Shown here piece by piece: positions 9,826 to 10,176 of a stretch of 64,000 nt of DNA. The stretch lies in NCBI GenBank assembly GCA_021737185.1, contig JAIPEL010000009.1:1-64000 (forward strand), written 5' to 3'. Made by a program: the position numbers and the translations under genes. Within the stretch, counting starts at the first letter, position 1. Each line of letters starts with the position of its first letter. The DNA is from Desulfobacterales bacterium (lineage in GTDB: Bacteria > Desulfobacterota > Desulfobacteria > Desulfobacterales > CAFBRK01). The notes under the pieces were generated by a model. That model was not told the DNA's origin and made no database searches. It worked only from the letters and a program-made list of their open reading frames with translations.

Positions 9826-10176
9826 ATGGCGAATTTTCTGTTCGTGGTGAGCCAGGACGACAACGAAAAGATGACGCGGTGCTATCAGTTCGCCAAGATC
9901 GCCCACGAAAAGGGGCACACCGTGAACGTCTTTTTGATCGACGGGGGGGTAATGTGGGCCGACACGGGCCGGGACCACGACATCAGAACGCCCACCGGGG
10001 ACTGCCCCAACGACTACCTGCCCTACCTGGTCGAGCACGAAGTGCCCATCGGCGTCTGAATCCCGTGTGCGAAGGCTCGTCAGGTTGACGAGTCCAAGTT
10101 CTTTTCCAACATGGTCCTCGACGGCGGCCCCCACCTGATCGACATGGCTGCCGACGCCAAGGTCTTCAACTTTTGA
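9826..10176 (+). CDS. DsrE-family protein, probable selenoprotein (Sec at the in-frame TGA 10057-10059), 116 aa
   Basis: The ORF stops at TGA 10059 in the track, but the same frame continues IPCAKARQVDESKFFSNMVLDGGPHLIDMAADAKVFNF* to TGA 10174-10176; UxxC motif (U-I-P-C); SECIS-like hairpin 10074-10094; RBS aaggagg upstream. Confidence 0.82.
10074..10094 (+). promoter_or_regulatory. Candidate bacterial SECIS element
   Basis: ggctcgtca-ggt-tgacgagtc: perfect 7-bp stem ctcgtca/tgacgag plus G-T and G-C extension; GGT loop 23 nt after the TGA. Confidence 0.75.

What the first reader, a model, noticed from the sequence alone, without database searches (positions are those of the whole stretch)
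9826..10176. Unannotated selenoprotein: DsrE-family protein with UxxC motif and adjacent SECIS-like hairpin
Sequence: the track ends this ORF at TGA 10057-10059. The same frame continues for 38 codons (IPCAKARQVDESKFFSNMVLDGGPHLIDMAADAKVFNF) to a second stop at 10174-10176, giving ...HEVPIGV-U-IPCAKAR.... The TGA falls where a redox Cys is expected in this family, creating U-x-x-C. Right after it, ctcgtca-ggt-tgacgag is a perfect 7-bp stem (extended by G-T and G-C pairs) whose GGT apical loop starts 23 nt after the TGA. Established: bacterial SECIS hairpins lie just 3' of the UGA with a G-rich small apical loop, and DsrE-like selenoproteins have been reported in prokaryotic selenoproteome surveys. 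Inference: this is a genuine Sec-encoding gene that standard callers would truncate.
Basis: partly seen in the sequence, partly recalled or inferred. Interest (0 to 1): 0.92.

Follow-up and report, generated by a model that had tools for sequence, protein, structure and literature searches.

The report
DsrE-like selenoprotein gene, cut at UGA
This short gene in a Desulfobacterota-like (sulfate-reducer-type) bacterium reads one "stop" codon as the rare amino acid selenocysteine, exactly where sulfur-carrier proteins of this family keep their working cysteine; it is a well-supported new member of a selenoprotein family known since 2005, not a new kind of system.

Summary
The ORF 9826-10176 (116 aa, TGA = codon 78) is a full-length DsrE-fold protein, with the TGA at the family's catalytic Cys78 and a hairpin that meets all four published criteria for a bacterial SECIS. 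The genome has selA, selB, tRNA-Sec(UCA) and two selD genes, both with an in-frame TGA. Codon 78 is TGA in 58 and Cys in 39 of 97 aligned sequences, and all continue past it. Hairpin codons 85, 86, 88 and 89 are the four least synonymously variable codons in the Sec forms, yet vary freely in the Cys forms; the stem shows compensatory changes that even alter residue 88. AlphaFold gives a confident DsrE/YchN/TusD fold. DsrE-like UxxC selenoproteins are already described (Sargasso Sea 2005; Desulfovibrio vulgaris 2006), so this is a new member of a known kind. Function is inferred: a stand-alone sulfur (persulfide) carrier or redox protein with selenocysteine as the sulfur-accepting residue. Side results: Cys forms that keep a SECIS remnant (Sec-to-Cys conversion), a second DsrE selenoprotein in the same genome (UGVC), and a CxxU DsrE variant in one genus.

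The parts
9826..10176 (+). DsrE-like selenoprotein gene, 116 aa, U78-I-P-C81; terminal stop TGA 10174-10176
   Evidence: (Pfam DsrE 3.9e-18 over residues 4-116, spanning the TGA)
10057..10059 (+). Sec codon UGA (residue 78)
   Evidence: TGA in 58, TGC/TGT in 39 of 97 aligned sequences
10074..10094 (+). SECIS hairpin, 9 bp, loop GGU at 10083-10085, 23 nt after the UGA
   Evidence: criteria from PMC13188914
9814..9825 (+). Shine-Dalgarno-like stretch (AAAAGGAGGAAGC) just before the ATG
   Evidence: sequence
9519..9797 (+). Smr-domain gene ending 28 nt upstream, same strand; possible co-transcription, link not conserved in relatives

Best explanation
The gene encodes a 116-residue, single-domain DsrE-family selenoprotein. 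Ribosomes insert selenocysteine at UGA 10057 by the ordinary bacterial route: SelB with tRNA-Sec binds the hairpin just downstream. Sec78 replaces the cysteine that in DsrE/TusD accepts sulfane sulfur as a persulfide; Cys81 can act as its partner (U-x-x-C). Likely action: Sec78 picks up sulfur as a selenenyl sulfide (Se-S) and either hands it on or has it released or reset by Cys81, that is, a soluble sulfur carrier or persulfide reductase in a sulfate-reducer-type cell. Shown: the gene, the predicted fold, the Sec machinery, the constrained SECIS and the Sec/Cys exchange. Inferred: that the protein is made with Sec (very likely), and the sulfur-carrier function and its partners (about 0.55).
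For: The genome has selB (367 bits, cut-off 242), selA (608 bits), two selD both with one in-frame TGA in the SelD active-site motif, and tRNA-Sec with anticodon tca. Pfam DsrE matches over the whole read-through. 65 loci in genome contigs and dozens in held genomes carry the gene, with TGA or Cys codons at the site. In 42 Sec against 27 Cys forms, codons 85, 86, 88, 89 have synonymous diversity 0.09, 0, 0, 0.09 against 0.79, 0.55, 0.50, 0.52; medians over the gene are 0.51 and 0.52. The core stem forms 6.1 of 7 pairs in Sec forms and 2.8 in Cys forms, and loop GGT is kept in 55 of 57 Sec forms. Three pairs have both-sided changes; 0 of 500 shuffles reach the covariation score. In L129 three neighbouring pairs and residues 86 and 88 changed together while GGU stayed. 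AlphaFold pLDDT 97.7, with YchN, DsrE and TusD among the best solved folds. U78 aligns with A. vinosum DsrE Cys78, the persulfurated, essential residue (PMC3397948).
Against: No protein or RNA data. The single-sequence hairpin energy is not exceptional (z -1.5). No conserved gene neighbours support a given pathway. DsrEFH and TusBCD are three-gene complexes, while this is a lone gene, so transfer of function from them is uncertain.
Confidence: 0.93

Rival explanations
1. The TGA is a true stop, or the gene is a pseudogene or carries a sequencing error; a 77-residue protein or nothing is made.
For: Standard gene finding ends here; single-hairpin energy is within the shuffle range.
Against: The same TGA recurs in 58 aligned sequences from many genera with the C-terminal part conserved, and codon-position GC continues across it. 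The DsrE fold includes the C-terminal strands.
Confidence: 0.03
2. The protein is a genuine selenoprotein but its job is thiol-disulfide or peroxide redox chemistry through U-x-x-C, not sulfur transfer.
For: U-x-x-C is the redox motif of thioredoxin-type selenoproteins, and the surveys class DsrE-like as a thiol-oxidoreductase homologue. Cys81 is invariant in the 41-row alignment, while sulfur transfer by TusD/DsrE needs only Cys78.
Against: The fold is DsrE/YchN, not thioredoxin, and U78 falls on the persulfide cysteine of DsrE.
Confidence: 0.35
3. The organism reads UGA generally as an amino acid (code change), so the hairpin is irrelevant.
For: TGA is in frame.
Against: This gene and others end in TGA with nothing conserved beyond; hairpin codons are constrained only in TGA forms; a full Sec system exists.
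Confidence: 0.01

Closest known systems
DsrE-like selenoprotein family, pfam02635, motif UxxC (PMC1088965, PMC1794560, PMC2398784, PMC13188914)
   Same: Same Pfam family, same UxxC motif, bacterial SECIS, recorded in Desulfovibrio vulgaris
DsrE / TusD subunits of DsrEFH and TusBCD (2hy5, 2d1p)
   Same: Fold and position of the active residue 78
   Different: Sec for Cys, an added Cys81, a stand-alone gene, only 21-25% identity in the structural match, far below the TusD family cut-off
YchN (1jx7)
   Same: Best structural match, single-gene DsrE-fold protein
   Different: 17% identity; no Sec

Membership tests
Bacterial selenoprotein gene | Sec machinery in the genome (selA, selB, selD, tRNA-Sec) | tested here: met
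Bacterial selenoprotein gene | In-frame UGA aligned with Cys in homologues, with conservation downstream | tested here: met
Bacterial selenoprotein gene | bSECIS model: loop 3-9 nt and stem 4-16 bp, G in the first two loop positions, 16-37 nt spacing, MFE <= -7.5 kcal/mol | tested here: met
   loop GGU, 7-9 bp, 23 nt, -13.7 kcal/mol; criteria from PMC13188914
Bacterial selenoprotein gene | Sec present in the protein | not testable with these tools
   needs 75Se labelling or MS
DsrE-like (PF02635) UxxC selenoproteins | Pfam DsrE match above gathering score across the UGA | tested here: met
   66.1 bits vs 22.7, residues 4-116
DsrE-like (PF02635) UxxC selenoproteins | UxxC motif | tested here: met
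   U78-I-P-C81
TusD / DsrE equivalogs | NCBIfam TIGR03012 / NF001237 cut-off | tested here: not met
   21 bits vs 89.25; 16.2 vs 92
TusD / DsrE equivalogs | dsrEFH or tusDCB gene triplet | tested here: not met
   neighbours are Smr, PlsY and CoADR-rhodanese genes upstream and narGHJI-like genes downstream

The most novel reading that the evidence does not exclude
The stand-alone DsrE-like selenoprotein is a dedicated sulfur carrier of sulfate-reducer-type bacteria that uses a selenenyl sulfide in place of a persulfide, filling the place of DsrEFH (reported absent in sulfate reducers, PMC3397948), and its repeated exchange with Cys forms tracks the sulfur and selenium economy of the cell.
Probability: 0.2. 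Interest if true: 0.5.

Novelty: new member of a known kind. Interest (0 to 1): 0.27.

Why it matters
It is a clean case of a gene that ordinary gene finding cuts to 77 residues, losing its catalytic residue. The many paired Sec and Cys forms, in genomes that keep selA wherever this was checked, make it a good natural experiment on why selenium is used: same fold, same site, one atom changed. Cys forms with an intact or near-intact SECIS point to recent Sec-to-Cys conversion in a family for which the 2006 survey listed none.

Tried and rejected
Rfam found no SECIS or other RNA family at the site; the only low-threshold hit was a chance miRNA match. Gene neighbourhood across relatives gave no conserved partner; the few repeated neighbours (CoADR-rhodanese in 5 loci, a NifX-like gene in 6) are weak. 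A TAG inside a relative of the second DsrE family (G140) looked like a possible UAG-Sec codon, but it is at another position and the Sec codon there reads TGG: a decayed copy. Membership in TusD was considered and rejected on score. The tree is too short (116 columns) to root the large Cys clade, so the direction of that change is left open. One paper on the Olavius symbiont selenoproteome was not held.

Full report
Observation. The reading frame 9826-10176 is as described: ATG, TGA at codon 78, 38 more codons, then TGA. A ribosome-binding site precedes the ATG. GC by codon position is the same on both sides of the inner TGA and becomes flat after the outer stop, so coding continues through the TGA. 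The hairpin is exact, 23 nt after the TGA, loop GGU, and folds as 9 bp. It meets all four constraints of the current bacterial SECIS model (PMC13188914). On its own such a hairpin is not rare: about 1% of TGAs in this window have one, so the case rests on comparison.

Machinery. The assembly that holds the window (4.5 Mb, 91% complete) has selB, selA and tRNA-Sec (ARAGORN, anticodon tca), and two selD genes, each with an in-frame TGA in the SelD active-site motif. The cell therefore very probably decodes Sec.

Relatives. One scan of 85,488 species genomes gave 65 loci, mostly Desulfobacterota (Deltaproteobacteria) MAGs and isolates by their titles. With further genomes, 97 aligned sequences, the window included, have TGA (58) or a Cys codon (39) at position 78, and none ends there. 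Three more relatives have Cys78 and TGA at 81. Sec forms read U-I-P-C, Cys forms mostly C-T-P-C.

SECIS under selection. In Sec forms the four stem codons 85, 86, 88 and 89 are the least synonymously variable of the whole gene. In Cys forms the same codons vary as much as the rest. Core pairs formed: 6.1 of 7 against 2.8; loop GGT in 55 of 57 Sec forms against 2 of 39 Cys forms. Pair 24-32 is U-A in most and C-G in eight, which changes residue 88 from Asp to Gly (Arg in L129); locus L129 changes three adjacent pairs at once and keeps GGU. A count on 28 sequences shows both-sided changes at three pairs, and no shuffle reaches the covariation score. Related sequences inflate that control, so the slid-partner control, 88% paired against at most 49%, is the better guide.

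Sec and Cys exchange. On a tree with the site masked, Cys forms make one large group plus single rows inside Sec groups (L038, L057, L134), and five changes are needed in all (many forks are weak). L038 has a Cys codon but the perfect SECIS (7 of 7 pairs, GGU), and L134 keeps 6 of 7 with GGU: remnants that point to Sec-to-Cys conversion. The 2006 survey (PMC1794560) lists one Cys-to-Sec and no Sec-to-Cys event for DsrE-like. All eight Cys-form genomes tested still have selA, so the machinery was not lost.

Fold and mechanism. AlphaFold on 41 window and locus sequences gives pLDDT 97.7. The best solved matches are YchN, DsrE of DsrEFH, Sulfolobus DsrE/F proteins and TusD. phmmer puts U78 on Cys78 of A. 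vinosum DsrE, shown to carry the persulfide and to be essential, and equivalent to TusD Cys78 (PMC3397948). The protein fails the TusD equivalog cut-offs by far and has no DsrF/DsrH or TusB/TusC partners next to it, so 'works like a sulfur carrier' is inference. The invariant Cys81 also allows a redox role.

Known or new. DsrE-like UxxC selenoproteins were found in the Sargasso Sea set (PMC1088965), in Desulfovibrio vulgaris (PMC1794560), as DsrE 1 and DsrE 2 in GOS (PMC2398784), and are in the 2022 and 2026 reviews. No experiment on function is reported in what I could read; the 2026 review says the functions of these families remain largely uncharacterized. The finding is a correct, well-supported new member.

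Window scan. No other TGA-ended frame of the window with a SECIS-like hairpin and a long extension looks like a protein.

Noticed in passing
L138:1746-2057 (own genome, contig C143, from 15245): A second DsrE-family selenoprotein gene in the same genome: 103 aa, in-frame TGA giving U-G-V-C, followed by TCCCAC-GGTCTG-GTGGGA with the GGUCU loop; 12 relatives read in the order have TGA at the same codon and a closely similar hairpin.
   Followed up: partly
L126, L127, L128 (G219, G174, G152): A DsrE-like protein with the motif reversed: Cys at 78 and in-frame TGA at 81 (C-K-A-U), in three genomes of one genus. The surveys read here list only UxxC for DsrE. The hairpin after it does not fit the standard SECIS well, so it is unproven.
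   Followed up: partly
L038:636-980; L134 (G076): Cys-codon forms that keep an intact (L038) or near-intact (L134) SECIS hairpin: likely recent Sec-to-Cys conversions, in genomes that still have selA.
   Followed up: partly
window 10441-18453: Genes for a NarGHJI-like membrane nitrate reductase (alpha, beta, delta, gamma) and an MFS transporter follow the gene on the same strand.
   Followed up: no
window 6715-8508: CoA-disulfide-reductase-like flavoprotein fused to a rhodanese domain, 1.3 kb upstream; similar genes lie near the DsrE gene in 5 loci in all.
   Followed up: no
L172 (G140:C110:11987-12295): A decayed copy of the second DsrE selenoprotein family: Sec codon changed to TGG and a TAG nonsense codon upstream, hairpin still present.
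   Followed up: yes
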